Below, piece after piece: positions 18,890 through 44,543 of a stretch of 64,000 nucleotides of DNA. Within the stretch, counting starts at the first letter, position 1. Every line of letters begins with the position of its first letter. The stretch comes from Branchiostoma floridae (Eukaryota; Chordata; Leptocardii; Amphioxiformes; Branchiostomatidae): contig NC_049991.1 in assembly GCF_000003815.2 (NCBI RefSeq), positions 19,362,822-19,426,821 on the forward strand. Direction: 5' to 3'. The notes below the pieces were generated by a model. The model saw only the letters and a program-made list of their open reading frames with translations. It made no database searches and was not told the origin of the DNA. Position numbers and translations under genes: made by a program.

Positions 18890-20694
18890 ATTACCATGGC
18901 TGCATGAACTATCAACTACGTATACTTGGTTTGAAAGAAGTGGTGACCAGCAAATGAAGTCGCGACGCCGCCCTGCTCTGCAACGGCCTGTCCGCTATAC
19001 ACTCCAGTTCCTCTAAAGAGTCATGTACATGTATGTACAATACAGCAACAATATCATGGCTGCATGAAGTATCAACTACTTGCTTTGAAAGAAGTGATGA
19101 CCAGCAATGGCTGAATGAAGTCGCGACGCCGCCCTGCTTTGCAAAGACCTGTCCGCTATACACTCGAATCCGTCTAAAGAGTCATGTACATGTATGTACA
19201 TTATCATGGATGCATGAAGTATCAACTACTTGGTTTGAAAGAAGTGGTGACCAGCAATGGCTGAATGAAGTCGCGACGCCACCCTGCTCTGCAACGGCCT
19301 GTCTGCTATACACTCCAGTCCGTCTAAAGAGTCATGTACATATATCATGTATGTACAATACAGCAACAATATCATGGCTGCATGAAGTATCAACTACTTG
19401 CTTTGAAAGAAGTGATGACCAGCAATGGCTGAATGAAGTCGCGACGCCGCCCTGCTTTGCAAAGACCTGTCCGCTATACACTCGAATCCGTCTAAAGAGT
19501 CATGTACATGTATGTACAATACAGTAACAATGCAATGGCTGCATGAAGTATCGACTACTTGGTTTGAAAGAAGTGGTGACCAGCAATGGCTGAATGAAGT
19601 CGCGACGCCACCCTGCTCTGCAACGGCCTGTCTGCTATACACTCCAGTCCCTCTAAAGAGTCATGTACATATATGTACATTATCATGGATGCATGAAGTA
19701 TTAACTACTTGGTTTGAAAGAAGTGGTGACCAGCGATGGCTGAATGAAGTCGCGACGCCGCCCTGCTTTGCAAAGACCTGTCCGCTATACACTCCAGTCC
19801 CTCTAAAGAGTCATGTACATGTATGTACAATACCAGGGCTTGAAATACTTTTTTCTGCATACCTGCACTGGTGCAGGTAACATTGAAAATTACCTGCACC
19901 AGACAAATTTTACCTGCACCACTCTTAATTTAGGAAATATGGATCATACTAAAATTTTTCAGGAACAATTGCTATTTTCTCTCCTATACTTTATAGGTCG
20001 TAACATTCAATGCAGCTAATAACAATCCACATACACTTACATCATATGACATGTATTTATAAAACCCAGTACATGGACCAGTGCAGGTTATGTGCAGGTA
20101 GACACCAGAAATACCTGCACAGCTCCAATTTCACCTGCACTATAGTGTATATGCAGGTGGTATTTCGAGCCCTGAATACAGTAACAATACAATGGCTGCA
20201 TGAAGTATCAACTACTTGGTTTGAAAGAAGTGGTGACCAGCAATGGCTGAATGAAGTCTTGACGCCGCCCTGCCTTGCAAAGACCTGTCCGCTATACACT
20301 CCAATCCCTCTAAAGAGTCATGTACATGTATGTACAATACAGTAACAATGCAATGGCTGCATGAAGTATCGACTACTTGGTTTGAAAGAAGTGGTGACCA
20401 GCAATGGCTGAATGAAGTCGCGACGACGCCCTGCTTTGCAAAGACCTGTCCGCTATACACTCCAATCCCTCCAAAGAGTCATGTACATGTATGTACAATA
20501 CAGTAACAATATCATGGCTGCATGAAGTATTGACTACTTGGTTTGAAAGAAGTGATGACCAGCAATGGCTGAATGAAGTCGCGACGACGCCCTGCCTTGC
20601 AAAGACCTGTCTGCTATACGCTCCAGTCCCTCCAAAGAGTCATGTACATGTATGTACAATACAGTAACAATATCATGGCTGCATGAAGTATTAA
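18890..20694 (-). repeat. array of kelch-like terminal-exon ends (about 161 bp x 9)
   Basis: Nine copies of an approximately 161-bp unit lie directly downstream of the kelch-like stop codon. Each corresponds to the last 32 codons of the coding sequence, the stop and about 65 bp of 3' flank. CAGCAATGGCTGAATGAAGTC, GACCTGTCCGCTATACACTC and GTCATGTACATGTATGTACA mark each unit. The array is split by a hAT-like insertion at 19834-20174. If the kelch-like transcript extends this far, the array is its 3'UTR. The open frames of up to 164 codons here are repeat artefacts. Confidence 0.85.
19834..20174. mobile_element. non-autonomous hAT-like element (5-bp target duplication)
   Basis: CAGGGCTTGAAATAC at the left is inverted as GTATTTCGAGCCCTG at the right. 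The flanks give a clean duplication of AATAC when compared with uninterrupted neighbouring array units. Internally there are many TACCTGCACC/GGTGCAGGTA words in both orientations. A relative with the same termini and a different 5-bp duplication (TTAAA) is at 55399-55722. CAGGG ends with 5-bp duplications fit the hAT5 type (family assignment inferred). Confidence 0.75.
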
Positions 20695-21169
20695 CTACTT
20701 GGTTTGAAAGAAGTGATGACCAGCAATGGCTGAATGAAGTCGCGCCGCCGCCCTGCTCTGCAACGGCCTGTCCGCTATACACTCCAGGCCCTCCAGGTGC
20801 AGACGTCCCGTAGTGCAGGCAAAGTTCTCAAACCTCACCACCTCCCTCTCGTTCAGGCACCACTGTCCGAACGGCCAGGGGAGGTCCGTGGGCGAGAAGA
20901 AGTAGACGTCCCGCATGCCCCCCTCCCCGGCGCCGCAGAGATACAGCCGCCCGTCCAGCGCCACCAATCCCACTCCTGACACCACGTTGTAGGGAAGCAC
21001 CACGCCCGGCTCCCACTTCTCCTTCTCGGGGTCGTACATCTCCATGGTAACCTGGCCCTGCCACGCCCCCACCGCGTAGATCTTTCCGTCGAGAGCCGCC
21101 ACGCCAGCCTTCATCCGGGCAATGGACATGGGCGCAAGCTCGGTCCACGTGTCGGTCGCGGGCTGGTAC
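20695..21169 (-). CDS. kelch-like terminal exon (last kelch repeats and repeat-derived tail)
   Basis: Acceptor TACCACAG before 21169, stop TAG at 20697-20695. It encodes the last kelch blades (YQPATDTWTELAPM, KIYAVGAW, MYDPEKEKWEPGV, RLYLCGAG). The final 32 residues (from EGLECIADRP to HHFFQTK) have no kelch features and match the unit of the downstream 161-bp array. The protein's C-terminus is therefore either the founder of that array or was replaced by it. Confidence 0.88.
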
Positions 21170-24100
21170 CTGTGGTAGAAGGATACTTTTATTCAATTTT
21201 ACCTTGTATGGGTACGGGTGTGTCGACTTCCCTTGGCTCGTCTGGCTTCCTCACAGGTAGCTCATAAAAACCTCGCCCAATGTCTGGATACAGGCTACAT
21301 GGAAGGAATTTCTATGTACAAGTCACAGCCATCGTTACTGTCAACAAGTTTCTGATGAATTAAAAGCAAGTTTCTGATCAATAATATAAAACCTACATGG
21401 TTATTGCTTAACTCTACTTAGAGCTTTATTTCTGTAGTTATTTCTGTAGTTTAACTAACACTTATATATGGCGTACCTGATCGTGGACGTGGTGACCACA
21501 CGCCTTGCATAGCCACCTAGCACATAGATGCAGTCGCCCACCGTCACCGCAGTGTGCCCGCTTATTGCGTAGGGCAAAGGTCGCGCTGCATGCCAAACGT
21601 TCGTGTCCGGGTCGTATCTCTCCACCGCCGCGATGTAACCCACGAGAAAGTTCTTCCCGCCCATCGCGTAGACGCTCTTCCCCACGCTCGCCATGGCAAA
21701 GTTCGTGCGTATGTCGCGCATGGACGCCTTCTCCAACCACACGTTGTGAACCGCGTCGTAAACGAAAAACAACCGACAGGGCTTACAGTGTCCGATGGCG
21801 TTGGCGTCCTCAACGTTTCCCCCGCCGACATACAGTTTCTGGTCTTCCGTGACAACAGCACAGGCATTCGAGGCGCTGTAAGGCAGCGGCAGGCGGTATT
21901 GTGTCTTGGCGTGGGGGTTGTAGGCTATACAGACGCTCCGGTCGGGAAAGTCTTTGTGTGGGTCTCCGCCCAAGAACAGGATGGTGTTGCAGCCCTTCAT
22001 GCCGAACCTCAGATCCGTCGTGAGCCCGAGAGATTCGGCGTATGCTGCGTTACCGTCCACATCGTCGTCCCAGCCCCTCACCTGTACAGCAGCCTCGCAG
22101 AGCTTCAGGGTCTCGGGACAGTCCTTCACCAGGCTGTGGGCTCGCACCTTCAGTGAGAGAAAGATATGGTTGATACAAATGTGCAAATTAAGTTACATGT
22201 GATGGGTCGTTCGGTGTAATATAACCAGCTGCTGCCGCGCGGGCGGTTATACCGGCTATATAGATACAGATACAGAAGCTGGTGTGTTACACCGAAGGGC
22301 GGTTATACCGGCTATGTAGATACAGATACAGAAAGAATTGATGACGTAAGAAAACTATTTGTACAACAAGCAGAGATTTCATAATATCATAGTCAATGCG
22401 CCTTTACATTTTTGCCAAGTTTGTCTCAGTCTCAAAACTGCAACATTATCCAAAGTACGCTCACTATTCCCACACCTACTCAAAATTTCCAATCAATCTT
22501 TTTAAATCTGCACACCCTGATAAATACACTCTCTTTCTACTGCCTTTTACCTCTTCAATCATAGTCAGGTTCCCATTTACATGTATACACCTGGGTGGAG
22601 TGTTGCATAGTTACTTTTATGTGGTAGCAATTAATAGCCTGCCACGAGAGTGAGAGAGGTAGCAATTAATAGCCCATTCCGTTAATGCAAGAGCCTGATC
22701 ATCCCACAACCAACTGGATGCCAGGTAAGACTGTGAAAAGTTTTGGGGGATTTCTGTGAATAGTTAACTTCTTCCAGAGTGGCAGTGTGGACATTGACAG
22801 GTTCACCTCTGACCTCTCCCCATTGCTTTTCAGTAAACTAGATTAGTTCATGCTTTAAACTTTCTGTCTACCAGTTGTGTAGGTTTTGTTCTTTTACATT
22901 TCATTTCATCGTGTCTGTGGAAAGCGGACTCCATGCCCAGAATAGTGTTAAAACCATGTAACAATAGTGCACATGTTTCAGCACTCACCTTCTCCTGTAG
23001 GTACTGGGGATCTATGAGGTAGTAGCGCACATGTTTCAGCACTCACCTTCTCCTGTAGGTACTGGGGATCTATGAGGTAGTAGCGCACATGTTTCAGCAC
23101 TCACCTTCTCCTGTAGGTACTGGGGATCTATGAGGTAGTAGCACACATGTTTCAACACTCACCTTTTCCTGGACGTACTGTAGATATATGAGGTAGTAGC
23201 GCACATGTTTCAGCACTCACCTTCTCCTGTAGGTACTGGGGATCTATGAGGTAGTAGCGCACATGTTTCAGCACTCACCTTCTCCTGTAGGTACTGTGGA
23301 TCTATGAGGTAGTAGCGCACATGTTTCAGCACTCACCTTCTCCTGTAGGTACTGTGGATCTATGAGGTAGTAGCGCACATGTTTCAGCACTCACCTTAGT
23401 ATACGTAGGTACTGGGGATCTATGAGGTAGTAGCGCACATGTTTCAGCACTAAACTTCTCCTGTAGGTACTGGGGATCTATGAGGTAGTAGCACACATGT
23501 TTCAGCACTCACTTTCTCCTGTAGGTACTGGGGATCTATGAGGTAGTAGCGCACATGTTTCAGCACTCACCTTCTCCTGTAGGTACTGGGGATCTATGAG
23601 GTAGTAGCGCACATGTTTCAGCACTCACCTTCTCCTGTAGGTACTGGGGATCTATCAGATAGTAGCGCACATGTTTCAGCACTCACCTTCTCCTGTAGGT
23701 ACTGGGGATCTATGAGGTAGTAGCGCACATGTTTCAGCACTTGGTCGGCCACGAGCCCATCGGCCCCCGTGTGCTCCAGCCACCTCATGGCGGCCTCAAA
23801 CACATCCGACTCCGCACGGACCTCCAGCGAATCGTCAGACACGAGCTCCACCAGCTGTTCTACTCCCAAACTCAGGAACTCCTCTCCCTCACTCACCTGA
23901 GAAGGAAATAAATCCATTTGTGGGGTCAGGTGGGATAACAGTAGGGTGTTTGGCCATGAAATGAGAGATCCTGGGTTCAAATCCAGCAATATATATGATA
24001 CAGATCTTGTTCACTGGAGAAAGGTGCTTGATTTACATTACTAATTACTCACATGTTAAAGAACCCACAACACTTAAAGAATAGAGAAGGGGTCCTTCTC

Positions 24101-27100
24101 GGTGTGACTGGATCAAACCTACTAGACTGAAGGTCAATAGATAAATAAATAAACCTTACAGTCTAGCCTCCACCACCACCACCCCTTTGCTCTTGATTTA
24201 CCCCATACTTTGCCCCTGTCTCACCTCCCTGATTCGGAGTTAATTGGGGGTGTTTAGTCTGAATAAAAAAGTTCAAGTTGCCCGTAAATCTGCGCGGATG
24301 CTTAGGGGTGGTGCCCATCTCCATTTAGCCCTTAGGCCACACATCTGTGCAAGCCACTACAGCAGGGAGCTGGTCCACTGGTAGTAATTCTAAGCGATGT
24401 GTGTTTAACATGCTCTTCCTCATTAGTGCTGAGTGGTAAGTAGAAAAAGCAGCATGTACCATTTCTTAAGTCTTTGGATCGAACTCACAACCTGCCGAAT
24501 GCAAGGCGAACACTCTACCCACTCGGCCATTGCACCGGTCAGAATTACTGAATACATGCATGTACATCCGTGAACAGTTTCATCAGGTTGGTACGTCACT
24601 GAATAAAGAGACTCTTTTTACACAACCAATGCTTTATTCTCACCGACGTTTCGGTGACCGTCTGTCACCTTCTTAATGTTATGGATGTATTACACTCCTT
24701 TACGTTTGGGACCGCATTGTAAATATGTGCATAAAGCTGTCTGTACATATGTACTTTTCGTTTTGTGACCGCATCTGAACTGTGAGCAGCAACACCTGTC
24801 CTGCAGTACAATGTGAACCAGTCAGACTTGCCCTGAAGAAGGGGACAGACGGTCACCGAAACGTCGGTGAGAATAAAGCATTGGTTGTGTAAAAAGAGTC
24901 TCTTTATCGACATGCATGTACAGTAGATGAAACAAACCTCTGTGAAGTTCCCCCCCAGCATCCACTTGGCGGCGCGCGTGAGCCGCCCGCAGTTGTGCGT
25001 TCCCGCCAGGAAGTACAGCGAGACGCAGTTTGCCGTTGTCAGGAACCGCAGCAGCCACTCCTCGCACGCACGCTGCAGGTTACCGATCTGGAACAGGTCA
25101 GCGGCCTGGAGAAGGGCCTTCACCTCCTGATGAGAATAGGAAAAAAAAGTATTATGGCACCAGGTCCTGGTGGAATTTTTATACACGAATAAAAGATGCC
25201 ATCTACATCACATACAGTCAAACCTGTATTAGGGGCCACCTCTACAGAGGGGCCACCTGTCCATAGTGACCACTTTTTGTCGGTCCCTTGGGTATTTTAT
25301 CTACAAGTTACCACCTCTATACAGAGGCCACCTGTCTATAGTGGCCAAATTTGTCCGGTCCCTTGAGTGGCCGCTATAGACAGGTTTGACTGTATTTACA
25401 ATCATCTCCAAACAGAGACGGTGGACACCATCTACTTTTTGCAACACTGCTCACTAAATCATGTGTGCTATCTACATAACATGACTTAACAGAAGCAGTG
25501 GATTGTCCATTCCTTGACAAACACTTGGGTCAATCAGCTGTCAAAAATTGATCAAGGTGTCTGTGCAGTACACCTTCATCACGGTATGGCCAAGTCTTAT
25601 GAGCTCATAATTTGTATGGATCTCCCCCTCCCCCCTGGGTCCTTGCAGAATAGGCGGAGCAACTCCTGAAAATTTGTACTACTAGGTACATGGTTCACAT
25701 GTTTTGTCCTACATGTCATGAAAATATAGAAGATGAATTCCACTTTGTTATGAAATGTCCTACCTACAGTAAAGAGAGAGAAACATTGTTTAAGAACATT
25801 AGAACCAAAACACACATCTCTCTTACTGGTGCAGAAAACGATATTTTCAATATATTGCTCTCATGTTCAACTCATATATCCGTCTACGTAGGCCAGTTTC
25901 TTCATAATGTATTCCAAATGCGAGACCAGATTACTCATACATAATTGTACTGTTATCAATGTTTTGTTATTGTTTTGTATGTAGCCTCTTAGTACTATTG
26001 TCTGTATAGCTATTAGTTGTTATTGGTTGTCATACATTGTTCCCTCTGCGATTGCTGAGCAATAAACTCATTCATTCATTCATTCATTCATTCATGTTTT
26101 CATGAGTCACTGATTCTAGAATTATTCCATTAACTTTGATACCCAGACCTGTATGATGTCAGGAGTGAGAGAAACCGTCTCAGTGTAGATACATGCATGT
26201 ACATGTAGGTCAGGGGAAAAAGTGTTCCGACTGCAAAATTTCAGGTTGCACACTGCACTAAGCAAAATGGTTGCATTTGAAGTATGGAAGATAAATGTTG
26301 TTACCCTTTCTTTCTTTTGTTTTTTTCGTTTTTGAGGCTACCAACTTCAATTTGCTCTGAAGACTTTTGTAGCCTAAATAATAAGAAAGTTTGCTGAAGA
26401 TTTTTGTAGCCTATATAAGAAAGTCGTGCAAAGTGCCTTCCCCAAGGGCACAAGACTGGTGACACGACGGGGTTTGAACTCAGGACCTTCTGGACCTGAG
26501 TCAAACGTGCTGCCGATTGCACCATGCGGTCCCACCAACCCCCCCCCCCCCATACCTGTATGCTGTCAGGGGTAAGAGAAACCGTGCCCGTGTAGATGTT
26601 ACATGTACCCATACCTGTATGCTGTCCGGAGTGAGAGAAACCGTGCCCGTGTAGATGTTACATGTACCCATACCTGTATGCTGTCCGGAGTGAGAGAAAC
26701 CGTGCCCGTGTAGATGTTACATGTACCCATACCTGTATGCTGTCAGGGGTAAGAGAAACCGTCCCAGTGTAGATGTTACATGTACCCATACCTGTATGCT
26801 GTCCGGAGTGAGAGAAACCGTGCCCGTGTAGATGTTACATGTACCCATACCTGTATGCTGTCCAGAGTGAGAGAAACCGTCCCCGTGTAGATGTTACATG
26901 TACCCATACCTGTATGCTGTCAGGATTGAGAGAAACCGTGCCTGTGTAGATGTTACATGTACTCATACCTGTATGCTGTCCGGAGTGAGAGAAACCGTGC
27001 CCGTGTAGATGTTACATGTACCCATACCTGTATGCTGTCCGGAGTGAGAGAAACCGTCCCCGTGTAGATGTTACATGTACTCATACCTGTATGCTGTCAG

Positions 27101-28596: not shown

Positions 28597-28649
28597 CTTT
28601 AGTCACTCTCCTACAACCTGAAAAGAAAGATGGCAGTCAGTTTGTGTAA

Positions 28650-30222: not shown

Positions 30223-30375
30223 ATGGTCCGTAGTCGAGTGAAACTCGTGATCTGTGCGATGCTGCTGTGTGTGAGTGCCGTAGTCGGGTTTGTGCTGACC
30301 CTGTACACACCCTCCCCAATCCTGGGTGTGGAGCGTCAGAAGGACACACACTACGGAAGACAAGGAAACAACCAG
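30223..30375 (+). CDS. FUCA: fucosidase exon 1 (signal peptide or anchor)
   Basis: 51 codons from the ATG at 30223, donor GTAAGG, phase 0. It encodes a basic start (MVRSRVK), a hydrophobic stretch ([20 protein letters not shown]), then a hydrophilic linker. This start is chosen because the hydrophobic segment fits a secretory signal. Confidence 0.85.
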
Positions 30376-33300: not shown

Positions 33301-36300
33301 TAATTTCTTCCTTCTGAATTTCATTAATGTAATCAGACAGTAAAATTGTGAAATCGGAGCACAGAATCACAGACCGTATTTCTTCTTTTAATTCAAATTT
33401 ATCCTTGAATAAATTCATAAATAAAAATTCACAGGCACAGTCAGTGTGGCAGCAGCTGAATGATCTGTCATGCCTACACTGTAGCCTTTGCACTTAAATC
33501 TGTAAGGAAGTGTTTAAAGCTTTCTAAGAATGCTCCTACTCTGTACTTGGTGTCAATCAGTTCCACTGTACTTGTATGATGTGGTTATCGGGAAAAACAA
33601 ATTTTTGATCAGACACCTCAGTCCTCGGTTGACAACTCTGGTACTTAAAGGTATTCATGACAATATTTCTTGTTTTCTGAGCTGATGCGTAATAGTCGGT
33701 AGATCTACCAGGCTATTAGTAATTTTGTACATTGGCTAATTTACAGTCAACCTGTGAAAAGAAAACACAGCAAACAAATGAACAGCAATGAGATTGAAAT
33801 GTGTACTGATGTCATGAATTGTACCAGGTTGACAACCTGATGCTATTCAGATGGCTGACTGCACATACATGTAGTAATGACTATCTGCAGTAGGATTTCT
33901 GCCATTGTTTTGCTTTGCTGATAAGGCAATATTTTTGCATTAATGATGTACCTATAATGACATTATATGATAACTTCTTCATGTTTTTTTATGATATTAT
34001 GTTACCACTGTAACGGTTGTAGTAGTGCAACCTTAGAATTTGCAAAAAAATTGTTATATTTTAAGAATTTCAAAGTTAATCCATTTGTTGATTCCAGGTG
34101 CACATGATCAAAACTTCATAGACTTCATGAAAAGGAACTATCCACCAGGTTTCCGCTACGCCGACTTCGCCCCCATGTTCACAGCAGAGTGGTACAACCC
34201 GTTACAGTGGGCAGAGGTCCTACAGGCATCAGGAGCAAAGTAAGGGGGCCATTCCATTTACTGTGCGGGGGGATAGTGAGGAAGGGACATAGTGGGGACA
34301 GAACGCAAAGTGTAGGCATTCATGCAGGGTTCAAGAAATGTTTGATTATGGAGTGTCTTGTCTGTTTCATGGTCTTATTGTTGAACTGTATGTACCTGAT
34401 GATATTGATAAAAGTTAGCCATCCAGGTAAACAATGTTTTCAAGTTAACTCAATCTCTACAACTGGGTAAGATTTGGAGATAATACTTCTGGACATGACA
34501 TGTCTGGACATGACATGTATCATGTCACTCTAAGTCTTCAGCATTACTAGAATGAACTGGTAGAACAAGTCAATACTTGTACATGAGAATTATAACCAGA
34601 AAAATGGAGATATCCTATCTGCTTGCAAGTCAAGAATCCTTTGTGACCCGTGATGGCATCCTCGATGTCCATGTTCAAGGTTCATCTTAGCCCTAACACA
34701 AGTCTGCCTGTTCCACAGGTACGTAGTTTTGACCTCCAAACACCACGAGGGCTTCACCAACTGGCCCTCCAAGTACAGCTGGAACTGGAACTCCGTGGAC
34801 AACGGGCCCCACAGGGACCTGGTCGGTACGTTTTTTTTTTAACGAGTTTGCTCAGTGCAAGGCCATAGACCACAAGGCCATAGGCAGTGGCGGCGGCAAA
34901 ATATGTTGGGGGGGCGTCGCACCCCCCAAAAAATCAAGCTGAAACCTTGTGTGTTTTTTTGATGATGGAAATTTTATAAAATCAAGCTAGTCTAACAGCA
35001 TAGTTTATTACCTGAAAATGCAAGAAATGGCGTTTCAGAGAGTCCCGATTTCAAAATTTTGCCAGACCTCCCTTGTGACGACTGCGTCTTCGACGCAGGA
35101 CAATATGTTGCGGGAGCGTTGCTCTGAAAAATCTTTTAAAATTTAATCTTTTAAAGATTTTAAAATTTTCTCCGGACCTCCCTAGGGATGACTTACGCCT
35201 CCGGCACTCACAACGACAATGTGAAAATTTGTGCGTGGTAATAGGTCATCGCCCTCAAACATCTTTTTCTTTGATTTAGCATAGTCTGCAAGCAAAACTT
35301 GTCCCTCAAAATACAGAAAATGTCATTTCAGAGGGTGCAGATTTCGAAATTTCCAAAGACCAACCTTGCAACAGCTCGCACCTTCGGCACTCGAAATCGT
35401 GAAAATATTTTGTGGGCGTCGCCCTCGCTAAAACCATGTGTCTTTCTAACAGAATTGCCATCAAACTTAGCTTAGTCTGGCAGCAAAATTTGCCCGTCAA
35501 AACGCATGAAATGCCGTTTTAGAGGGTCTAGATTTCAAATTTTCATTTGCGACGGGTAGCGCCTTCGGCGCTACGTAAGCGCGTGCCGCAAAATTCTGTC
35601 AGTAAAAGTTCGCCCCCCCAGATGAAATTTCCTGCCGCCGCCTCTGATAGGCCATAAGGCGCCAAACTACGCTCGCTGTGGCAGCATCTCTTCTCCCTAA
35701 GTCAGAAACATCGAGCTTCAGCAAGTTCGACTAACTGACTCAATAGGCGAAGCAGGGGTTATGAGGCTGCTCGGGAAATTCCCTACCCCACTTACATGTA
35801 GCCGGAATGGTTTGATCCACTCACACCAGGAAGGTCCCCTACTCTTTTCGACAAGTGTGGCAGGTTGTTTTAATAGTTTTATGTGCCCGGGTGCCCGTTT
35901 ACTTTAGCCTAGGTTGTTCATGATACGATGATATTTAAAATAATGTTCACAACTGGAACTCTGTGGACAGCGGGCCTCATAGGGACCTGGTTGGTACATT
36001 CACTTGGATTGGATGTAGCAAAACACAATCTCAAGCCGGCTTCACTCCTCTGCTTTTGATACCATCTTATGCTACCGTAGGATCTGCTTGGAGATTAACT
36101 GAAAGTATGAGAATGACGAAATGTCTTTCCATTCCAGGTGAGCTAGCCATGGCCATCAGGAACAATTCGGACCTGCACTTCGGGCTGTACTACTCCCTGT
36201 TCGAGTGGTTCCACCCGCTGTATCTCAGGGACAAGCAGAACAAGTGGGCAACACAGGACTACACCAAGGTAAGTACTACTCCCTGTTCCACCTGCTGTAC

Positions 36301-39300
36301 CTCAGGGACAAGCAGAACAAATGGGCAACACAGGACTACACCAAGGTCAGTACTACTCCCTGTTCCACCCGCTGTACCTCCAGGACAAGCAGAACAAGTG
36401 GACAACACAGGACTACACCAAGGTCAGTACTACCCCCTGTTCCACCCGCTGTACCTCCAGGACAAGCAGAACAAGTGGGCAACACAGGACTACACCAAGG
36501 TCAGTACTACTCCCTGTTCCACCCGCTGTACCTCAGGGACAAGCAGAACAAGTGGACAACACAGGACTACACCAAGGTCAGTACTACCCCTTGTTCCACC
36601 CGCTGTACCTCAGAGGGACAAGCAGAACAAATGGGCAACACAGGACTACACCAAGGTCAGTACTACTCCCTGTTCCACCTGCTGTACTTCCAGGACAAGC
36701 AGAACAAGTGGACAACACAGGACTACACCAAGGTCAGTACTGCTCCCTGTTCCACCTGCTGTACAGTTTGTACTTCCAGGACAAGCAGAACAAGTGAGCA
36801 ACGCAGGACTACACCAAGGTCAGTACTACTCCCTGTTCGAGTGGTTCCACCCGCTGTACCTCCAGGACAAGCAGAACAAGTGGACAACACAGGACTACAC
36901 CAAGGTCAGTACTGCTCCCTGTTCCACCTGCTGTACTTCCAGGACAAGCAGAACAAGTGAGCAACGCAGGACTACACCAAGGTCAGTACTACTCCCTGTT
37001 CCACCCGCTGTACCTCAGGGACAAGCAGAACAAGTGGACAACACAGGACTACACCAAGGTCAGTACTACCCCCTGTTCGAGTTCTTCCACCCGCTGTACT
37101 CCAGGACAAGCAGAACAAGTGGGCAACACAGGACTACACCAAGGTCAGTACTACCCCCTGTTCCACCCGCTGTACCTCCAGGACAAGCAGAACAATTGGG
37201 CAACATAGGACTACACCAAGGTCAGTACTACTCCCTGTTCCACCCGCTGTACCTCAGGGACAAGCAGAACAAGTGGGCAACACAGGACTACACCAAGATC
37301 AGTACTACTCCCTGTTCCACCTGCTGTACCTCAGGGACAAGCAGAACAAATGGACAACACAGGACTACACCAAGGTCAGTACTACTCCCTGTTCCATCTA
37401 CTGTACCTCAGGGACAAGCAGAACAAGTGGGCAACACAGGACTACACCAAGATCAGTACTACTCCCTGTTCCACCTGCTGTACCTCAGGGACAAGCAGAA
37501 CAAGTGGACAACACAGGACTACACCAAGGTCAGTACTACCCCCTGTTCCACCTGCTGTAGCTCCAGGACAAGCAGAACAAGTGGACAACACAGGACTACA
37601 CCAAGATCAGTACTACTCCCTGTTCCACCCGCTGTACCTCAGGGACAAGCAGAACAAGTGGACAACACAGGACTACACCAAGGTCAGTACTACCCACTGT
37701 TCCACCTGTTGTACCTCAGGGACAAGCAGAGCAAGTGGACAACACAGGACTACACCAAGGTCAGTACTACTCCCTGTTCCACCCGCTGTACCTCAGGGAC
37801 AAGCAGAACAAGTGGGCAACACAGGACTACACCAAGGTCAGCGTGGTCTCACACCACAGTTGTCAAATTAATGTAGCCTTTATGCTATCCTTGCTTAAGG
37901 ATTAGGATTAGGTCAGAAATTTTTTTTTAGATTTCTTTTGTTCACACTTATGTACCATGTACAATATTGTTATAATTGAATATAATTCTATCCTTGTCTT
38001 ATCTCATTGATATTGTCTTTGTCACACACATCCCAAAACATAATCTTCTTGGCAAAGATAGTTATACAATGTATGTTAATGTTGTACCATCCATAGGATG
38101 TAGGCCTTGCCGAGCTGTATGAACTTGTGAACGCCTACCATCCAGAGGTGGTGTGGTCGGACGGGGACTGGGAGGCACCCTACACCTACTGGAACAGCAC
38201 CAACTTTCTCGCATGGCTCTACAATAACAGGTGCCAATCATTCTGTTTCATTCATTTTATTTCATTTGTTTGCTGTGTATGCCTTTTCCTAAGTATGTAG
38301 AAACGAACTTGCTTCCTAGAAGTCTGCCTAGTTTGTACTTGATCATGACGCAGGTCCCACTGTTCACCCATCCTACTAATGAAGATCAAATTAAATGAAC
38401 TTGTGTCTTTCAACACAGGCCAATCAATGCCCAGTAATATAACAAGTTCCATATTTGCCAATAAGCATAATGAGCATGGAGTATCAAGTTTGCGGAGACA
38501 AGTGCAAAGGACCGTGCAACCTGGAGACTTCTAACGAAGAGGAGCAAGGGGCCAGTCCCTGGCCTAGGCACTTAGGCAGTAGACAGACAGTATTGAGCGC
38601 CAGCTGCAACAATGCTCAGAAAACTTGACAGTGTTTGTTTTTGTGTTGGGATAACAGTTTCTTCACATGTTTGGTTGGTAATAGGTTTTCATATTCTTGA
38701 TGGCTGATAGTTCTCATGTCATCTATTAATCATTCTCTTATGCATGATAATTTTTGTTTGTTTTGTGCCCTCAGCCCTGTTAAGGACACAGTGGTGACCA
38801 ACGACAGGTGGGGAAGCGGCATGTTATGCCACCACGGAGGGTACTACACCTGTTCAGACAGGTATAACCCAGGTGAGCATCCACACTAGATGGCCTTGAA
38901 CATTACTTACAGCTACTTAATCATAGAAGTTGTGTCAACTGCTGCCATGCCGTATGTCTGCAAAGCTGGTGGTTATGCTGAAGGGTGGTTATACCAGCTA
39001 TATTAGGTACATAATTATACAAAAGCTGAATGTGTTACACAGAATGATATCGTTAAACTGGCTGAAAAATAATATATAGATACAGATACAGAAGCTATAT
39101 ATTGACTGTTATACCAAAGGGGGGTTAAGAATAAGGAGGAATAATTTTGTTAGAATCATAGATTATGTACCAGTAAAGTTTGTAACTGCTTGAATCAGAA
39201 TGGGTTCTTTACATTTGTCAGATAGACTTTATCACACTCTTTTCGAACTGTCCAGGTGATCTGGATAAGAAAGTCAACCCCTGGTTATGAACCGGGACGA

Positions 39301-42300
39301 GAGGGATACAAGCTTAGCCATGTTTGGGATTGTTTTGTCACTGCGAAAGCGCCACCTACATCGGCTACATATTGCCGTAAGAAGCAGAACTACAGTTAGA
39401 AGCTCTGACGAAGGTGTCTGAGAGACATCGAAACGTAAGCAATGTAAGTCCCTGCTGGTTGTATAAAAAGAATTCTCCTATATCCCATGCCCAGGTGTCC
39501 TGCAGAAGCACAAGTGGGAGAACTGCATGACGATCGACAAGAAGTCGTGGGGGTTCCGCCGCGAGGCGACCTTGGCAGACTACCTAGACATGGATGACCT
39601 TGTCAAGATCTTGGCGGAGACAGTCAGGTCAGGTTTCACACTTGACCTTTGACCTTCACTATTGACCCTTGACCTGCTAAAGCTCCTGTCATACATTCAG
39701 GACTTGACCTTCAGACACATAGTGACACAGAATGGCTGAGTGGTTAGAGCTAAAGGTCACAAGTTCAATTCTTGGCACTCTGGTCTTGACGTTGTGATCT
39801 GCAGCTGGCCTGCATTCATTATCATCTTGTCCTCTTGTTTGAATTGATTTCTTCATAAAGTCATCAGACAAACTTGACATAGATTGGTCTTCTGACTATA
39901 CTCTTAAAGGGACATAATGTAGAAATATGGCGCCAAAATTTCAAATGTTCTGAACTTAAAGATTTCAAGTCAGACTGACATTTGTAACTTATTTCCGACT
40001 TATCTGCGTCATTTTATCACATTTGTAGCGCTAATTAACAACGCCAAAGTAAGCCCCGAACAAATTCACATACTTCCGGGTAGCCTACCCGGAAGTATGT
40101 CAGTTCTAGACTTCCGAATCGACCGTTGCGGTCGCAGATCATTTGAGCTTAGCGGGGACTTTCAACAAACTTCAGTAACGATTCGAGCGAACCACCGAAC
40201 ACGTTCTAGAGCGCGCCTTGGTTCGTCGGAGAGTTGGATAAAATGGCGGACAACTCAAGCGGCGATGGGAAGTGCGCATATTTCAAGACGTCCTCACGGC
40301 ACTACAAAGCCGTATCAATACGTTGTAAATATTGCTGTGCAGTGTAATAAGGTAGACTCAACTCATAATGCAGAAAAATGACCGAAAACAGTAACTTTAT
40401 TTTTTACATTATGTCCCTTTAAGCTATTTTTCAATGGTTTATACATGAAGTATATGTAGCATCTGTCTTCTCTTTCACGACCAGTGAAATATGAACTCAA
40501 TTGTTCATGGAGTAAGCATGAAATCTTGAGTTCATTCCAGCTAACCTTCAAGGTCACCTTGACTTCCAGTTGTGGAGGTTTATAAATACTGTACATAGCA
40601 TCTGAATATGTCTTCTCTGTCTTGACCAGCATGAAATTTTATTTGAGCTCATTCGAACTAAACTTCAAGGTCACCTTGACTTCTCCAGTTGCGGAGGAAA
40701 CCTGCTGATGAACATCGGACCGACTCACGACGGTCGCATCGTGCCGATCTTCGAAGAGCGCCTGCGGAGCATGGGGAAGTGGCTGAATGTCAACGGGGAT
40801 GCCATCTACGCAACCAAACCATGGAGGGCGCAGAACGACACTCGGGAACCAGGCGTCTGGTGAGATATAACAATATATCATATTTTGTTGTCGATTTATT
40901 TACTTATTTGAGCTTTACCATGTGCACAAACAAAAATGGTGGGGAGGCAAAAACAGATGAGAACATATACAATAATAGACACAAGGATAGATATAATGAC
41001 AATGAATGATACCAATGGTACTAAGATAATATTAATAATAATTATAATAATGTTGACAACAATAAGAACAAATAGAAACAAATGTATTATAGAAATGATG
41101 GTAAAATGAAATATCTAAAAAGGTTTACCGTTGGGACATTAACAGTGGGTAAGCCAAGTGCATACATTTTCCCAAAGGAGAAAACAAATTAATTGTTTTG
41201 CTGGTGCATCCTTTTTCTTTCTTCCTCCTAGCACAAAAGGGTTATGGAAAAGGCTTGGCTGTCTACCTGGGCTGTGTATCATGTCAGGCTACTCAGATAA
41301 CCCCATTCAAAGCCCCAATTCAAACTATAAACTCAATTTTTGGGGTAACATAGAGTCATTGTTTTAAAAACTGTGTATTTAGAGATTTTAGGTCAACAAT
41401 GTGGGTTTCAAATGTCAACATTTCAAAGATATTGCAGTGAGAAACTACCTTCCATCGACTTAACGATCCCCAAATAGTAAATACCCTATTTATAATCATG
41501 CAACGGATAACAGTTACCCTACAGATGAAGGTGAACTTACGTTATATCTTTTGTTAAACAGATTCTTAGCGAGAAGAAATCAAATTCACGTAATACACTC
41601 GGCACAAAAAGTTTGGAATATCAACTTTGGTATATCATATTTCTGTTATTTATGCATCAATTTCAATGTATTATATATCAATAGAAAGCTTGTGTGATTT
41701 TCTTTCCTATGGTATCAAACTTATTATGATTGTAAACACATGAAACGAGCACAAGGCCTGCTTACGTGAGTGGGTCACGAAAAAAAAGTGCCCAAATTCC
41801 CCTAATTCTGTTCAACACTGTATCGTCCTGTTGATATTGGCGCGAGTGTCACTGGTTCAATCAATCCTCTTTTCACCTCACATTTTGTATACGGAACATA
41901 CAAGGTTTCAGTACACTTGAGCAGAGTTCATCTGCCCTTTCGATAGTTGGATGGCAGCGTGGATGCGGCAAGGAGAACCGCACGCTGACAAGGCAAGAGT
42001 AACTTTCGGCATTTGGTGGTGGAGGCAGCGTCATGGTGTGGGGCGGTATAACCGCCATAGGAAAAACAAGACTCGTCATCATTCCAGGCAAATTAATGTG
42101 GTGACAAATAGGGACACCATCCTCCATCCAATAGCAACATTCTACCTCTTCAATATTGGACCAAATACCATTCTGCAAGATTACAACACCAGTCCACACA
42201 GAGCAAGGACCATTAGATGCTGGAGCACAGTCTTAGGGTGGAATAGCCTTCCTACGGCTTATGGCTAGCACTCGATTGATCACCTCTTGCCATGGTTCAG

Positions 42301-44255
42301 ATTTTTTGCTTAATAGTAGATTTTATTGACATGTCCTGTTTATTCAACTTGCCTTCATTCACAAGTCAATACTGACGGTAAAAAATGAGCGATTAGAGTG
42401 ATTGACTTTAGTAGGGTAACTTTGGCACTTTATCTTTGTGACCCACTGAACGTAAGCAGGCCTGGTGCTCGTTCCATGAATTTACACTCATAAAATACTC
42501 TACTCAGATATGCTAAAAAGAAACTTGGACGTTCTGTATACCAAACGTTAGGTGATAAAAGGATTGATTGAATTATTGTCACCCGCGGCCATAACAACAG
42601 TTGAACCGGACGATACAGTTTTGAACAGAACGGGGGAATTTGGGCACTTTTTTTTCGTGACCCACTCACGTTAGCAGGCCTAGTGTATATTCCATGAGTT
42701 AACAATGATAATGAGTTTGATACCATTGGAAAGAAAATCATGCAAGCTTTCTATAGATATATAATATATTGAAATTGATGCAGAAACAACATAAATATGA
42801 TCAACCGAAGTTGGTATTCCAAACTTTTTGTGCTGAGTGTAGAATACAATTCTTGTATTGTTTAACCCTTGTCCTGCGGGCCCAGTTATATAACCGGATG
42901 CACATGTTGTGCCTGTGTGCGGTCCGGTTATTTAACCGGTTGGGGGTATTCCCCACAGGAACCTTTGTGGCTTCTGTACGGTAACCAGGAACAGCTGGGA
43001 AGAAGATGGGGGCTGCATGAATGGGGTCAAGGGTCAATATCCTGGTTGCGCAATCAATCCCAGAGCTCTTTGCGGGCATAAATTATGTTAATGAGCCAAG
43101 ATGGCCGACTGTCGTCTGCAGATATGTTTTTTTCATGTTTTTTTCGTGTTTTGGGGCATAAATTCTTAGTTTAGTCGCTAAAATGTCAAAGTTTACTTAG
43201 AAACAAGTGCATAAGGAGCCTTTCCCCACTGATTCTGAGGCAGAACATCCAATTTTGGGCAAGAATGGTGAAGAAATGCTGCCGAACATGAGAAAAGAAG
43301 ATATGCACGTGAACTTTACCATTTTTATGGAAAATTACCCCCCACGCAACAGGAAACGAATTAGGACAGTCTGTTAAGCTGCAAATTCGTCCTTGGTTAC
43401 TTTTGTGGAGGTCATTAAGTACCTTGATGTGGCAAATAATTAGTGACAGATGGAGCTGATCATATGTTACATTATTCTATTGAACAGCCTTTTCAGCACC
43501 CAGGACAATACCTAGCCATAAACTCACCTGTAGTGATACCTGGGTAATTTTTTTTGCTGCATGTGTGGCTCTGATGTTATCAGTATGTCATAGGAATGTT
43601 GTAGTGTTGATACTAAGATTATTTATAAAATTCAGGTATTATTAATACAAAAGTTTATGAAATTAACTTGTTTTATTGATTTATTACCCTTGCATATCAT
43701 TTTTATGACTCAGGGTAAAACTTTCAAGACATAACTTAAAAGTAGAGACTCTCAGCTTTCTATTGATGTATAACATTATAGGGTTACTTAAATGCAAAGT
43801 AACTAGAAAATAGCAAAGTAAAAGCATTTCCCATACTTTGAAGAGAGTCAAAAGTCCCCAGCACAGGGAGGGTATATGGGTAAAAAATTGCCAGCAGGAC
43901 AAGGGTTAACATATTTCATGTATCTGTTGTGGCAACCTGTACTTAACCCAGTGGATATGTAACTATGTACAATAAAGGTCTTCATTCATTCATTCATTCT
44001 CCTTTGTTTGAAAGGTACACTTCCAAGAATGACAGCGTCTACGCCATCGTGCTGGATTGGCCCAAGTCCGGACAGCTGACCCTCGGGGTTCCGAGGTCAT
44101 CGCCCACGACTACGGTCACAATGCTGGGCTGGGCAACTCCGCTGAAGTGGGCGGCAGTGTCAGGCGGAGGGATCACGGTACAGATGCCGACTGCTTTGCC
44201 TAACCAGCTGCCGTGCCAGTGGGCATGGGTCATTCAGATGAAGGGGGTGATGTAG
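30223..44255 (+). CDS. FUCA: alpha-L-fucosidase (GH29), ten coding exons
   Basis: Joined: 30223-30375, 32198-32345, 34098-34239, 34719-34825, 36138-36268, 38097-38230, 38775-38872, 39495-39627, 40689-40859 and 44015-44255. This is 1458 nt, 485 codons plus stop, all junctions in phase with GT/AG ends. A hydrophobic N-terminus (about residues 7-27) is a signal peptide or anchor. Family landmarks are [59 protein letters not shown] and [18 protein letters not shown]. By homology Asp249 in WSDGD is the catalytic nucleophile; His81 (HWG) and His156/157 (KHHEGF) line the fucose site. It would remove alpha-linked fucose from glycans, in lysosomes or outside the cell. Sequons include NNS, NST and NDT. 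Length is close to animal FUCA1/FUCA2 (about 460-470). An alternative exon 2 lies at 33037-33181. Confidence 0.95.
30838..32197 (+). repeat. array of exon 2 acceptor edges (about 147 bp x 9)
   Basis: Nine copies precede the genuine exon 2, with the CCCC-ATATGCACC landmark at about 30880, 31034, 31178, 31321, 31468, 31615, 31760, 31911 and 32058 (real: 32201). Each unit has intron sequence (TAATTAACTTATCAACCATA, CTATTGATCAACAGCAG) and the first 62 bp or so of exon 2 (codons [21 protein letters not shown]). The copy then breaks off into intron-like sequence. Many copies keep the AG acceptor. The unit is longer than in the donor arrays and more diverged. Confidence 0.92.
32198..32345 (+). CDS. 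FUCA: fucosidase exon 2a (HWG version)
   Basis: Tandem acceptor AACAGCAG allows a start at 32198 or 32201, differing by one Gln. Donor GTACAG; phase 0 in, 1 out. It encodes the first beta strand of the catalytic barrel with the conserved [20 protein letters not shown]. It is the last and only full-length member of the preceding array. Confidence 0.93.
32346..33036 (+). other. fucosidase intron between exons 2a and 2b
   Basis: Intronic sequence; an AT-rich middle and no recognised repeat. Confidence 0.5.
33037..33181 (+). CDS. FUCA: fucosidase exon 2b, alternative second copy of exon 2
   Basis: Acceptor TGTGCTCAG, donor GTACAC, 145 nt, phase 0 in and 1 out, exactly as exon 2a. It encodes [20 protein letters not shown] and [20 protein letters not shown], about 75% identical to 2a by eye and without stops. 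The conserved His of HWG is Val here. Including both exons would break the frame, so 2a and 2b can only be mutually exclusive. The open frame, clean splice sites and conservative changes suggest it is functional or only recently silenced. Confidence 0.8.
33182..34097 (+). other. fucosidase intron 2
   Basis: No exon, repeat family or RNA gene is recognised. Confidence 0.5.
34098..34239 (+). CDS. FUCA: fucosidase exon 3
   Basis: Acceptor GATTCCAG, donor GTAAGG, phase 1 in and 2 out, residues about 101-147. It encodes [20 protein letters not shown] and [10 protein letters not shown], a well-conserved GH29 segment. Confidence 0.92.
34719..34825 (+). CDS. FUCA: fucosidase exon 4 (KHHEGF)
   Basis: Acceptor TTCCACAG, donor GTACGT, phase 2 in and 1 out. 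It encodes [20 protein letters not shown] and [15 protein letters not shown], including the two active-site histidines. Confidence 0.93.
34885..35646. mobile_element. non-autonomous hAT-like element (CAGTGGCGGCGG ends)
   Basis: CAGTGGCGGCGGCAAAATA at the left is inverse to the right end CCTGCCGCCGCCTCTG. ATAGG flanks both sides (34880-34884 and 35647-35651), a 5-bp duplication. Inside are three or four diverged copies of a block with TTTCAGAGGGT, GATTTCGAAATTT and GCCTTCGGCACTC. It is in fucosidase intron 4. Confidence 0.7.
35652..35949 (+). other. fucosidase intron 4, rest
   Basis: Contains a weak SINE-like tail near 35805-35900 (CACTCACACCAGGAAGGTCC). Nothing else is recognised. Confidence 0.4.
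35950..35993 (+). repeat. extra copy of the exon 4 3' edge with donor
   Basis: CAACTGGAACTCTGTGGACA continuing to GGACCTGGTTG|GTACAT repeats the last 14 codons or so of exon 4 ([14 protein letters not shown]) and its donor, 1.1 kb downstream. There is no acceptor in front of it, so it is not an exon on its own. Confidence 0.8.
36138..36268 (+). CDS. FUCA: fucosidase exon 5
   Basis: Acceptor CATTCCAG, donor GTAAGT, phase 1 in and 0 out, residues 184-227. It encodes [20 protein letters not shown] and [20 protein letters not shown] then DYTK. Its last 70 nt or so plus the donor are the founder of the 77-bp array that follows. Confidence 0.93.
36269..37842 (+). repeat. array of exon 5 3' ends with splice donors (77 bp x 20)
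   Basis: About 20 units follow exon 5. Each reads TACTACTCCCTGTTCCACC, GCTGTACCTCAGGGACAAGC and ACACAGGACTACACCAAG, then the donor GTCAGT. Three units have AAG|ATCAGT and so lack GT (about 37299, 37452, 37605). Two units regain GAGTGGTTC as in the true exon and one has GAGTTCTTC. The 77-bp length (3 x 25 + 2) with no stops in any frame creates a 637-codon open frame that cycles through all three readings. That frame is not a gene. Confidence 0.95.
38097..38230 (+). CDS. FUCA: fucosidase exon 6 (catalytic nucleophile)
   Basis: Acceptor ATCCATAG, donor GTGCCA, phase 0 in and 2 out, residues 228-271. It encodes [20 protein letters not shown]. Asp249 in WSDGD corresponds to the GH29 nucleophile; NST is a sequon. 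Confidence 0.94.
38231..38774 (+). other. fucosidase intron 6
   Basis: No repeat family or exon is recognised. Confidence 0.5.
38775..38872 (+). CDS. FUCA: fucosidase exon 7
   Basis: Acceptor GCCCTCAG, donor GTGAGC, phase 2 in and 1 out. It encodes [20 protein letters not shown] and [11 protein letters not shown], matching the conserved NDRWG and CHHGGYY segments of animal fucosidases. Confidence 0.94.
38955..39125. repeat. dispersed GGTTATACC repeat in intron 7
   Basis: GCTGGTGGTTATGCTGAAGG, GGTTATACCAGCTATATTAG and AGATACAGATACAGAAGCT match the unit at 22220-22335. Confidence 0.55.
39280..39480 (+). repeat. dispersed repeat with CTGACGA...GAAACG motif
   Basis: Matches the minus strand of 51420-51560 over GCGCCACCTACATCGGCTAC-like sequence, GAAGCAGAACT and GCTCTGACGAAGGTGTCTGA, then GAAACGTAAGC. 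A third partial copy is near 48215-48255. The CTGACGA, stem and GAAAC arrangement resembles a hammerhead core but carries an extra A before the stem. Confidence 0.55.
39495..39627 (+). CDS. FUCA: fucosidase exon 8
   Basis: Acceptor ATGCCCAG, donor GTCAGG, phase 1 in and 2 out. It encodes [20 protein letters not shown] and [19 protein letters not shown], a conserved GH29 stretch. Confidence 0.94.
39908..40418. mobile_element. MITE with TTAA target duplication
   Basis: TTAA, then AGGGACATAATGTA, and at the other end TACATTATGTCCCT then TTAA. TTAA duplications are typical of piggyBac and Kolobok elements; which one is not determined. The interior includes two inverse copies of ACTTCCGGGTAGC (40072-40098), and its open frame (40097-40381) has no recognised domain. 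It is in fucosidase intron 8. Confidence 0.75.
40440..40578 (+). repeat. extra copy of the exon 9 acceptor edge
   Basis: TTCAAGGTCACCTTGACTTC with CAG|TTGTGGAGG at about 40550-40578 duplicates 40667-40698 (the exon 9 acceptor and its first codons), 119 bp upstream. Flanking AGCATCTG, TGTCTTCTCT and CGACCAG are duplicated too. The copy keeps a usable AG but would read VEVYKYC-like sequence rather than the conserved GGNLLMNIG. Confidence 0.75.
40689..40859 (+). CDS. FUCA: fucosidase exon 9
   Basis: Acceptor TTCTCCAG, donor GTGAGA, phase 2 in and 2 out. It encodes [20 protein letters not shown] and [20 protein letters not shown], then KPWR, the conserved end of the catalytic domain. Confidence 0.94.
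40860..41595 (+). other. fucosidase intron 9, first part
   Basis: AT-rich; (AAT)n-like sequence near 41020-41080. At 41400-41545 there is sequence related to one end of the 45548-45753 MITE (CAACGGATAACAGTTACCC, GAAGGTGAACTTA). No exon is seen. Confidence 0.45.
41596..42839 (+). mobile_element. Tc1/mariner element with long inverted repeats and decayed transposase
   Basis: Ends CACTCGGCACAAAAAGTTTGG and CCAAACTTTTTGTGCTGAGTG are each flanked by TA (41594-41595 and 42840-42841). The inverted arms extend inward about 200 bp (AAGGCCTGCTTACGTGAGTG against CACTCACGTTAGCAGGCCTA). Inside, translations in two frames give Tc1-like transposase pieces: [20 protein letters not shown], then after a frameshift [12 protein letters not shown] and [17 protein letters not shown]. 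The transposase is broken by shifts and stops. It lies in fucosidase intron 9. Confidence 0.85.
42866..43905. mobile_element. piggyBac-like non-autonomous element
   Basis: TTAA|CCCTTGTCCTGC at the left and GCAGGACAAGGG|TTAA at the right (duplications at 42862-42865 and 43906-43909). CCCT-type ends with TTAA duplications fit piggyBac. The 1040-bp interior has inverse ATATAACCGG/CCGGTTATTTAACC motifs near the left end and no transposase. It sits 26 bp from the Tc1 element. Confidence 0.75.
43910..44004 (+). repeat. LINE 3' tail with (CATT)n
   Basis: GCAACCTGTACTTAACCCAG, GTACAATAAAGGTCTTCATT and a (CATT)n end at 43982-43999 look like a severely truncated LINE 3' end. It lies directly before the acceptor of fucosidase exon 10. 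Confidence 0.6.
44015..44255 (+). CDS. FUCA: fucosidase exon 10 (C-terminal beta domain)
   Basis: Acceptor TTTGAAAG, phase 2 in, stop TAG at 44253-44255, residues 406-485. It encodes [20 protein letters not shown] and the beta-sandwich end ([20 protein letters not shown] then IQMKGVM), comparable with the C-terminal domain of animal fucosidases. Confidence 0.93.
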
Positions 44256-44455
44256 GGCTTTTCCATGGTTTTCTAAAATTCACTTGTCCTATCGGGAAAG
44301 CACCTTAAAAATTTACTTGCCCAAACCAAATTTTCACTTCAAATGTCACTTTTATATGCATTTTCACATGAAGCAATGGAATGCTATATTCTATTGTTGC
44401 CTCTTTTCTTTTTCTATGTTGACCATTGCTTGATGCTGTGACTGTGAAAACTAAT

Positions 44456-44543
44456 GGGAGGATCGCGGTACAGATGCCGGCTGCTTCGCCTACCCAGCTG
44501 CCGTGCCAGTGGGCGTGGGTGATACAGATGAAGGGGGTGGCGT
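44456..44543 (+). repeat. extra copy of the exon 10 coding end
   Basis: GATCGCGGTACAGATGCCGG to the stop GTGGCGTAG repeats the last 28 codons or so of exon 10, about 285 bp downstream of the original. It still reads without interruption ([20 protein letters not shown], then IQMKGVA and stop). Whether it is in the 3'UTR or used as an alternative end is unknown. Confidence 0.85.

What the first reader, a model, noticed from the sequence alone, without database searches (positions are those of the whole stretch)
18890..44543. Two adjacent genes share repeated tandem copying of exon edges
Counted directly: five arrays and four single extra copies in this 26-kb gene pair all contain an exon edge, three with splice donors, three or four with acceptors, two with a stop codon. 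Both genes and both strands are affected. The copies lie on the intron or 3' side, so a normal transcript is still possible if the founder edge is used. I recall that amphioxus minisatellites spanning exon-intron boundaries have been described at the Adh locus (called 'mirage'); that is from memory. If so, this window shows the same process hitting two unrelated neighbouring genes many times. The mechanism (slippage at splice-site-like words, transcription-linked breaks, or selection keeping spare splice sites) is open.
Basis: partly seen in the sequence, partly recalled or inferred. Interest (0 to 1): 0.9.

Follow-up and report, generated by a model that had tools for sequence, protein, structure and literature searches.

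The report
Tandem-copied exon ends in lancelet genes
Two neighbouring genes of a lancelet carry many tandem copies of their own exon ends, a known lancelet habit called 'mirages', here unusually dense and also copying stop codons; the copies look like neutral decoys that seem to have traded sequence with the working exon.

Summary
The window is Branchiostoma floridae (amphioxus). A kelch-like gene on the minus strand (613 aa, identical to a named B. floridae protein) lies head to head with an alpha-L-fucosidase gene (484 aa). Inside the pair, five tandem arrays and four single extra copies each contain one exon edge: 4 splice donors, 3 acceptors and 2 stop codons. Random placement puts all five arrays on edges with P = 2e-4, and 9 of 13 local duplications with P = 5e-6; GC content alone does not explain it. 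The region was picked because it showed the pattern, so these values are conditional. No genome-wide test could be run. These are 'mirage' minisatellites, already published for amphioxus Adh3, globin, troponin C and PGBD5 genes. New here are the density, the stop-codon edges and evidence on how copies behave. Decoy splice sites are not preserved: GT changed at 4 of 104 sites against 116 of 3317 elsewhere. The array in fucosidase exon 5 appears to have exchanged coding variants with the working exon. Best reading: exon-biased tandem duplication, within-exon events purged, unequal exchange within arrays, splicing at the founder edge.

The parts
20695..28617 (-). Kelch-like (BTB-BACK-Kelch) gene, coding exons 28617-28445, 27880-27736, 25126-24938, 23896-23687, 22147-21477, 21169-20695; stop codon 20697-20695; a UTR donor at 29650 is read from sequence only
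   Evidence: 613 aa, no internal stop; Pfam BTB 1.1e-28, BACK 8.3e-26, Kelch_1 2e-31; P0121 kelch-like protein diablo isoform X1 [Branchiostoma floridae], 100% identity over 100%
30223..44255 (+). Alpha-L-fucosidase gene, coding exons 30223-30375, 32201-32345, 34098-34239, 34719-34825, 36138-36268, 38097-38230, 38775-38872, 39495-39627, 40689-40859, 44015-44255
   Evidence: 484 aa; Pfam Alpha_L_fucos 7e-134; human FUCA1 7pls 1.1e-186 over residues 51-483, so across the junctions after exon 2; 96% to P0002 (B. floridae x B. japonicum), one-residue gap at the exon 1/2 junction
18874..20795 (-). Array 1: last 101 nt of the kelch-like coding sequence, stop codon included, plus 60 nt of 3' sequence; unit 150-168 nt, about 10 copies (founder 20635-20795), split by a mobile-element-like insertion 19833-20181
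   Evidence: 9 copies found by anchor, one more diverged copy at the far end read; insertion has a relative at 55399-55725
22965..23741 (-). Array 2: 3' end of kelch-like exon 23896-23687 plus donor (54 nt exon + 4 nt intron), 58-nt unit, 13 full copies plus a partial
26549..27777 (-). Array 3: 3' end of kelch-like exon 27880-27736 plus donor (42 nt exon + 17 nt intron), 59-nt unit, 21 copies, the last one truncated
26140..26191 (-). Outlying diverged copy of the array 3 unit, separated from the array by repeat-like DNA
   Evidence: separating DNA has relatives elsewhere in the window
28096..28143 (-). Single extra copy of the acceptor edge of kelch-like exon 27880-27736 (30 nt exon + 18 nt intron, 83% identical)
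30840..32272 (+). Array 4: acceptor edge of fucosidase exon 2 (about 75 nt intron + 72 nt exon), unit about 147 nt, 10 copies; founder is the 3'-most copy 32126-32272
33037..33181 (+). Complete diverged duplicate of fucosidase exon 2, also 145 nt with both splice sites; either exon keeps the frame, both together would not (candidate mutually exclusive exon)
35951..36000 (+). Single extra copy of the donor edge of fucosidase exon 34719-34825 (43 nt exon + 7 nt intron, 88% identical)
36187..37841 (+). Array 5: 3' end of fucosidase exon 36138-36268 plus donor (81 nt exon + 5 nt intron in the founder; 16 of 21 copies are 77 nt), 21 copies
40515..40578 (+). Single extra copy of the acceptor edge of fucosidase exon 40689-40859 (9 nt exon + 61 nt intron in the founder)
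44460..44549 (+). Single extra copy of the last 86 nt of the fucosidase coding sequence, stop codon included, plus 4 nt; frame still open to the stop

Best explanation
These are mirage minisatellites: DNA-level tandem duplications whose unit spans an exon edge, seen here nine times in one head-to-head gene pair, including two that span the stop codon. Shown: each unit is contiguous exon plus flanking DNA; the founder edge stays joined to its exon; the extra copies lie on the intron or 3' side; decoy donors in three arrays change as freely as other sites; variants in array 5 are reshuffled among copies. Inferred: the founder edge is used in splicing because exon definition favours the copy nearest the rest of the exon, so the array is removed with the intron, or carried in the 3' UTR for stop edges. 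Also inferred: edges are over-represented because tandem duplication in this pair falls mainly on exon-containing DNA, while duplications lying wholly inside an exon would break the protein and are lost, leaving those that overhang an edge. Arrays then grow, shrink and mix by unequal exchange and gene conversion, which includes the founder exon.
For: Anatomy. All 9 edge units overlap an exon, although random placements of these lengths overlap one only 23-33% of the time. None of the 13 clusters lies wholly in an exon. Base composition does not account for it: GC-matched placement gives a product of 4.6e-6 for the nine (about 1.3e-3 for the five arrays alone), and seven flank units are not GC-rich. 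Founder use: the gene model with founder edges equals the B. floridae protein at 613 of 613 residues and aligns with a lancelet fucosidase over its length with one one-residue gap. Neutral decoys: GT changed at 4 of 104 positions versus 116 of 3317 others, Fisher P = 0.78. Unit lengths 58, 59 and 77 are not multiples of three; reading on through array 2 meets a stop 23 codons past the exon, and through array 3 two codons past it. Recombination: three biallelic sites within 33 nt of the array 5 unit show 8 of 8 combinations in 21 copies. Precedent.
Against: No RNA evidence was available; predicted 'isoform X' proteins are not transcripts. The exon-bias plus purging account was not separated from an edge-specific hotspot. 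Reading on through array 5 stays open for 578 codons, 43 of them the exon itself, so frame alone does not forbid use of its decoy donors. Decoy donors in array 2 score the same as the true one in 9 of 11 counted (12 exist), and in array 3, 14 of 20 score slightly higher (8.55 against 8.16), so site strength does not mark the founder there. In array 3, all five exonic sites whose variants are shared by two or more copies are third codon positions, which a purely neutral array would not be expected to show.
Confidence: 0.68

Rival explanations
1. Edge-specific mutational hotspot: something at exon boundaries (splice-site words, a step in composition, transcription- or U1-linked breaks) seeds the duplications.
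For: In the donor arrays the unit ends 4, 5 and 17 nt past the exon, and two single copies end 7 nt (donor) and 4 nt (stop) past it. In array 2 the junction word GTG sits in the donor consensus.
Against: Two of nine units straddle stop codons, which are not splice sites. The acceptor array unit reaches about 75 nt into the intron. Array 5 has 0-1 nt of junction homology (read). For old single copies the short intronic part may only reflect faster loss of intron similarity.
Confidence: 0.2
2. Chance plus ascertainment: amphioxus is rich in minisatellites, and this window was picked because several happened to lie on edges.
For: Flanks also hold arrays, such as 2410-3476, 7740-8045 and 59151-60378. 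The region was chosen after the pattern was seen, no genome-wide test was run, and old copies that hold conserved exon are easier to detect.
Against: All five arrays on edges in 39 of 200,000 placements; 9 of 13 clusters in 1 of 200,000; GC-matched product 4.6e-6. The same kind of structure is published for other amphioxus genes.
Confidence: 0.1
3. Selection keeps the copies as spare splice sites, alternative exons or alternative 3' ends.
For: Most decoys keep GT or AG (48 of 52 donors; 8 of 9 acceptors in array 4). Array 3 variants shared by two or more copies are all at third codon positions, and all 20 of its decoys keep an open exonic frame. The stop-codon copy at 44460 keeps its frame.
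Against: GT is no better conserved than other sites. Decoys in array 5 carry nonsense codons, indels and dead donors. Units are not multiples of three in the three donor arrays.
Confidence: 0.06
4. Assembly artefact inflating single-copy edges.
For: Published mirage loci were misassembled, or differed in copy number, in early assemblies (PMC3087553, PMC3902484 passages).
Against: Copies differ from one another in many combinations, the gene pair contains no N, and nine separate places in two genes are affected.
Confidence: 0.03

Closest known systems
Mirage minisatellites of amphioxus (globin genes BflGb6 and BflGb9; PGBD5; Adh3 and troponin C as cited there)
   Same: Tandem units spanning an exon-intron boundary, donor or acceptor side, founder retained, many but not all copies keep splice signals, copy number differs between haplotypes or assemblies (PMC3087553 and PMC3902484 passages)
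   Different: Nine edge-spanning duplications in one 26-kb gene pair, two of them spanning stop codons; the passages I read describe only intron/exon boundaries
Intronic partial exon copies in amphioxus VCBP3
   Same: Complete or partial exons, some with canonical splice sites, in introns next to the true exon (PMC2632668 passage)
   Different: Not described as tandem arrays in the passage I saw; data not shown by its authors
Intron gain by tandem duplication across AG/GT words (Rogers model, cited in PMC3087553; potato RdRp case PMC4974935, search listing only)
   Same: Tandem duplication that duplicates splice signals inside a gene
   Different: No new intron is shown here; copies lie in introns or past the 3' end of the coding sequence

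Membership tests
Mirage minisatellite | Tandem repeat unit spans an exon-intron boundary | tested here: met
   Arrays 2, 3, 4 and 5
Mirage minisatellite | Founder edge kept intact and joined to the rest of the exon | tested here: met
   Gene models with founder edges match lancelet proteins
Mirage minisatellite | Regular splicing is not disturbed | not testable with these tools
   No transcripts at hand; predicted proteins only
Mirage minisatellite | Copy number unstable between haplotypes or tissues | not tested
   The genome search unanswered; only one haplotype seen
Mirage minisatellite | Boundary is exon-intron (array 1 and the fucosidase 3' copy) | tested here: not met
   Those two units span the stop codon and 3' flank instead; filed as related, not as strict mirages
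Mirage minisatellite | Host is a cephalochordate | tested here: met
   P0121, 100% identical, named Branchiostoma floridae
Intron gain by tandem duplication | A new functional intron bounded by duplicated splice words | not tested
   Intron positions were not compared with relatives; the gene models need no intron inside an array

The most novel reading that the evidence does not exclude
Mirage arrays act as a reservoir of coding variants: decoy copies gather changes free of selection and gene conversion writes them back into the working exon end, so that proteins evolve faster at array-bearing exon ends. In array 5 the R213 and A220 codons of the working exon occur in 11 and 10 of the 20 decoys, while the rest have Q and T. 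None of eight relatives compared has R or A there; Q and T each occur in 3 of 8, including the lancelet P0002 and a sea urchin. Of 19 fucosidase replacements against P0002, 9 fall in the 96 of 484 residues inside duplicated units (Fisher one-sided P = 0.005). Direction of transfer is not shown; the kelch-like gene shows an excess only through its C-terminal tail.
Probability: 0.22. Interest if true: 0.78.

Novelty: new member of a known kind. Interest (0 to 1): 0.5.

Why it matters
Mirages have so far been reported gene by gene in the papers I saw. A gene pair with nine such duplications makes the process measurable: it helps to separate exon bias from splice-site bias (stop codons are copied too), shows that decoy splice sites are not preserved, and points to exchange between decoys and the working exon. 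If general, lancelet genes are a natural experiment on how splicing picks one edge among many near-identical ones, on intron gain, and on a route by which neutral repeats can feed protein change.

Tried and rejected
Junction microhomology as a common cause: no shared pattern. Array 2 ends in a partial copy with 16 nt of homology, array 5 has 0-1 nt, and array 3's last copy is cut off by a G run (read by eye).

Base composition as the cause: seven flank array units average 0.41 GC against 0.42 for random flank segments, P = 0.60, so composition is not the driver.

Founder donor stronger than decoys as a rule: true only for array 5 (GTAAG against GTCAG or ATCAG in 20 of 20 decoys). In array 2 the scores are equal for most decoys and in array 3 the decoys are level or slightly better. 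The donor score matrix used approximate frequencies recalled from memory.

Coding selection on decoys: array 3 has 5 of 5 exonic sites with shared variants at third positions, but array 5 has 3 of 10 and array 2 has 2 of 3 (counted by hand, founder-private changes and indels left out), so there is no general rule.

mis-cut arrays 2 and 5 (wrong frame, founder missing); it was replaced, and its numbers for those arrays are not used.

Other genes in the flanks: eight flank ORFs gave no Pfam family above its curated cut-off (one sub-threshold hit); the flanks were not otherwise searched for exons.

Prior art search: ten paper searches listed no genome-wide survey of mirages and no stop-codon case that I could recognise from titles and abstracts. 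The original Adh paper is not held and was not read.

Full report
What the window is. Two complete genes fill the part pointed out. On the minus strand lies a BTB-BACK-Kelch gene whose six coding exons give a 613-residue protein. It matches 100% over its full length the protein named 'kelch-like protein diablo isoform X1 [Branchiostoma floridae]' (P0121). On the plus strand, with its start codon 573 nt from a kelch-like UTR donor that I read from sequence alone, lies an alpha-L-fucosidase gene of ten coding exons and 484 residues. It is 96% identical to a protein named from Branchiostoma floridae x B. japonicum (P0002), and from exon 2 on it is collinear with human FUCA1 (7pls, residues 51-483, E 1.1e-186). 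So this is amphioxus, and the exon edges are firmly placed, although by homology and prediction and not by RNA.

What the observation amounts to. I ran a self-BLAST of the whole window on one strand and kept pairs within 4 kb. Of 28 clusters, 13 lie between 18874 and 44549. Nine contain exactly one exon edge in the founder unit and four contain none. The nine are: the kelch-like stop codon (array 1), two kelch-like donors (arrays 2 and 3), a kelch-like acceptor (single), the fucosidase exon 2 acceptor (array 4), two fucosidase donors (single 35951 and array 5), a fucosidase acceptor (single 40515) and the fucosidase stop codon (single 44460). That makes 4 donors, 3 acceptors and 2 stops. Extra copies lie on the non-coding side in all nine. 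Of the four edge-less clusters, three look like mobile elements: two have relatives elsewhere in the window and one has inverted arms. The fourth, at 25236, has no relative in the window. Six smaller TRF rows in the pair (units 4-37 nt, scores 51-106) also hold no edge; the largest is a 37-nt unit with 1.9 copies at 26357. None of the nine founder units and four single copies tested has a dispersed relative in the window. Two further copies fall inside these clusters: a diverged array 3 unit at 26140-26191, cut off by repeat-like DNA, and a full second exon 2 at 33037-33181.

Is it more than chance. I removed the extra copies, which left 18,843 nt with 34 edges, and dropped units of the observed lengths at random, refusing places wholly inside an exon. 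All five arrays hit an edge in 39 of 200,000 trials (mean 0.97 hits). At least 9 of 13 clusters did so in 1 of 200,000. Matching each unit for GC content, the product of probabilities for the nine is 4.6e-6, and about 1.3e-3 for the five arrays alone. These values apply after the region had been chosen for this very pattern, and old single copies may be easier to see when they hold conserved exon. Both biases favour the pattern, so the values must not be read as genome-wide evidence. The genome search tool did not answer in eleven tries.

What kind of bias. All nine units overlap an exon, while random placements of these lengths do so 23-33% of the time. If duplication favours exon-containing DNA and events wholly inside an exon are lost because they break the protein, only edge-spanning units remain. 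No edge-specific process is then needed. The two stop-codon cases fit this and do not fit a splice-site word. An edge-specific hotspot is not excluded: the donor units stop only 4, 5 and 17 nt into the intron.

How the copies behave. In the three donor arrays the GT of 52 decoys is changed at 4 of 104 positions, against 116 of 3317 at the remaining sites (Fisher P = 0.78). Decoy sites are therefore not visibly being preserved. In array 5 the working donor is GTAAG, whereas all 20 decoys read GTCAG (17) or ATCAG (3), as if the true site had been strengthened or protected; the older state is not known. In array 2, 9 of 11 counted decoys score the same as the true donor, and in array 3 decoys score level or slightly better, so position must also matter. 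Reading on through array 2 meets a stop 23 codons past the exon and through array 3 two codons past it, while array 5 stays open for 578 codons, 43 of them the exon.

Exchange between decoys and working exon. In array 5 three two-state sites within 33 nt occur in all eight combinations among 21 copies, which points to frequent recombination or conversion. At two of them the working exon has R213 and A220. None of eight relatives compared has R or A there; Q213 and T220 each occur in 3 of 8, including P0002 and the sea urchin protein P0008, and the other relatives have other residues. Copies are mixed: 12 R and 9 Q; 11 A and 10 T, founder included. The probably derived states are thus shared by the founder and about half the decoys. 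Transfer between founder and decoys after the array was born is the simplest account; an array mixed from two alleles in a polymorphic population is a variant of it. The direction is open. The single copy of the fucosidase 3' end reads S and T where the working exon has L466 and N468; P0002 also has S and T, but no other relative does, so which state is older rests on that one protein. Of 19 replacements against P0002, 9 lie in the 96 residues within duplicated units (2 in array 4, 3 in array 5, 4 in the stop unit, none in the other two; one-sided Fisher P = 0.005). In the kelch-like gene the excess over all units is significant against three lancelet proteins (P = 0.0007, 0.005, 0.0001) but only because of the C-terminal tail: with the stop unit left out, P = 0.31, 0.50 and 0.28. 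I report this as suggestive only.

What is known. [quoted passage not shown] it cites further loci (references seen). PMC3902484 (passages) adds PGBD5, cites troponin C, and notes different copy numbers in two assemblies. PMC2632668 (passages) mentions intronic exon copies in VCBP3. The arrays at splice edges here meet the defining features that could be tested. The two stop-codon duplications do not span an intron and are filed as relatives. My ten paper searches listed no genome-wide survey that I could recognise.

Verdict. It is a dense new case of a known lancelet phenomenon, with stop-codon edges and probable decoy-exon exchange as its new aspects.

Noticed in passing
33037-33181 versus 32201-32345: The fucosidase gene has two versions of exon 2, both 145 nt (not a multiple of three) with usable splice sites, so they look mutually exclusive; the second reads IVWG where the first reads MHWG, a His that I recall as a substrate-binding residue in this enzyme family.
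   Followed up: partly
19833-20181: A 349-nt element with inverted ends (CAGGGCT...AGCCCTG) interrupts array 1; a 74% relative lies at 55399-55725 on the other strand.
   Followed up: partly
36138-37873: The frame of fucosidase exon 5 stays open through the whole 21-copy array (578 codons), although the unit length is not a multiple of three.
   Followed up: partly
32190-32214: The founder acceptor of fucosidase exon 2 is a CAGCAG tandem acceptor; the related protein P0002 has the extra Q that the upstream AG would give.
   Followed up: partly
20695-20795: The kelch-like C-terminal tail coded inside array 1 differs strongly between lancelet species (14 and 15 of 30 aligned residues differ from P0123 and P0122), while the sequence just before it is conserved.
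   Followed up: partly
P0124 (B. lanceolatum isoform X4): This predicted isoform lacks the 70 residues of the exon that carries array 2 in B. floridae; the exon is 210 nt, so skipping keeps the frame.
   Followed up: no
2410-3476, 7740-8045, 59151-60378: Large tandem arrays in the flanks, where the eight ORFs I tested gave no Pfam family above cut-off; whether they touch exons of unrecognised genes was not resolved.
   Followed up: partly
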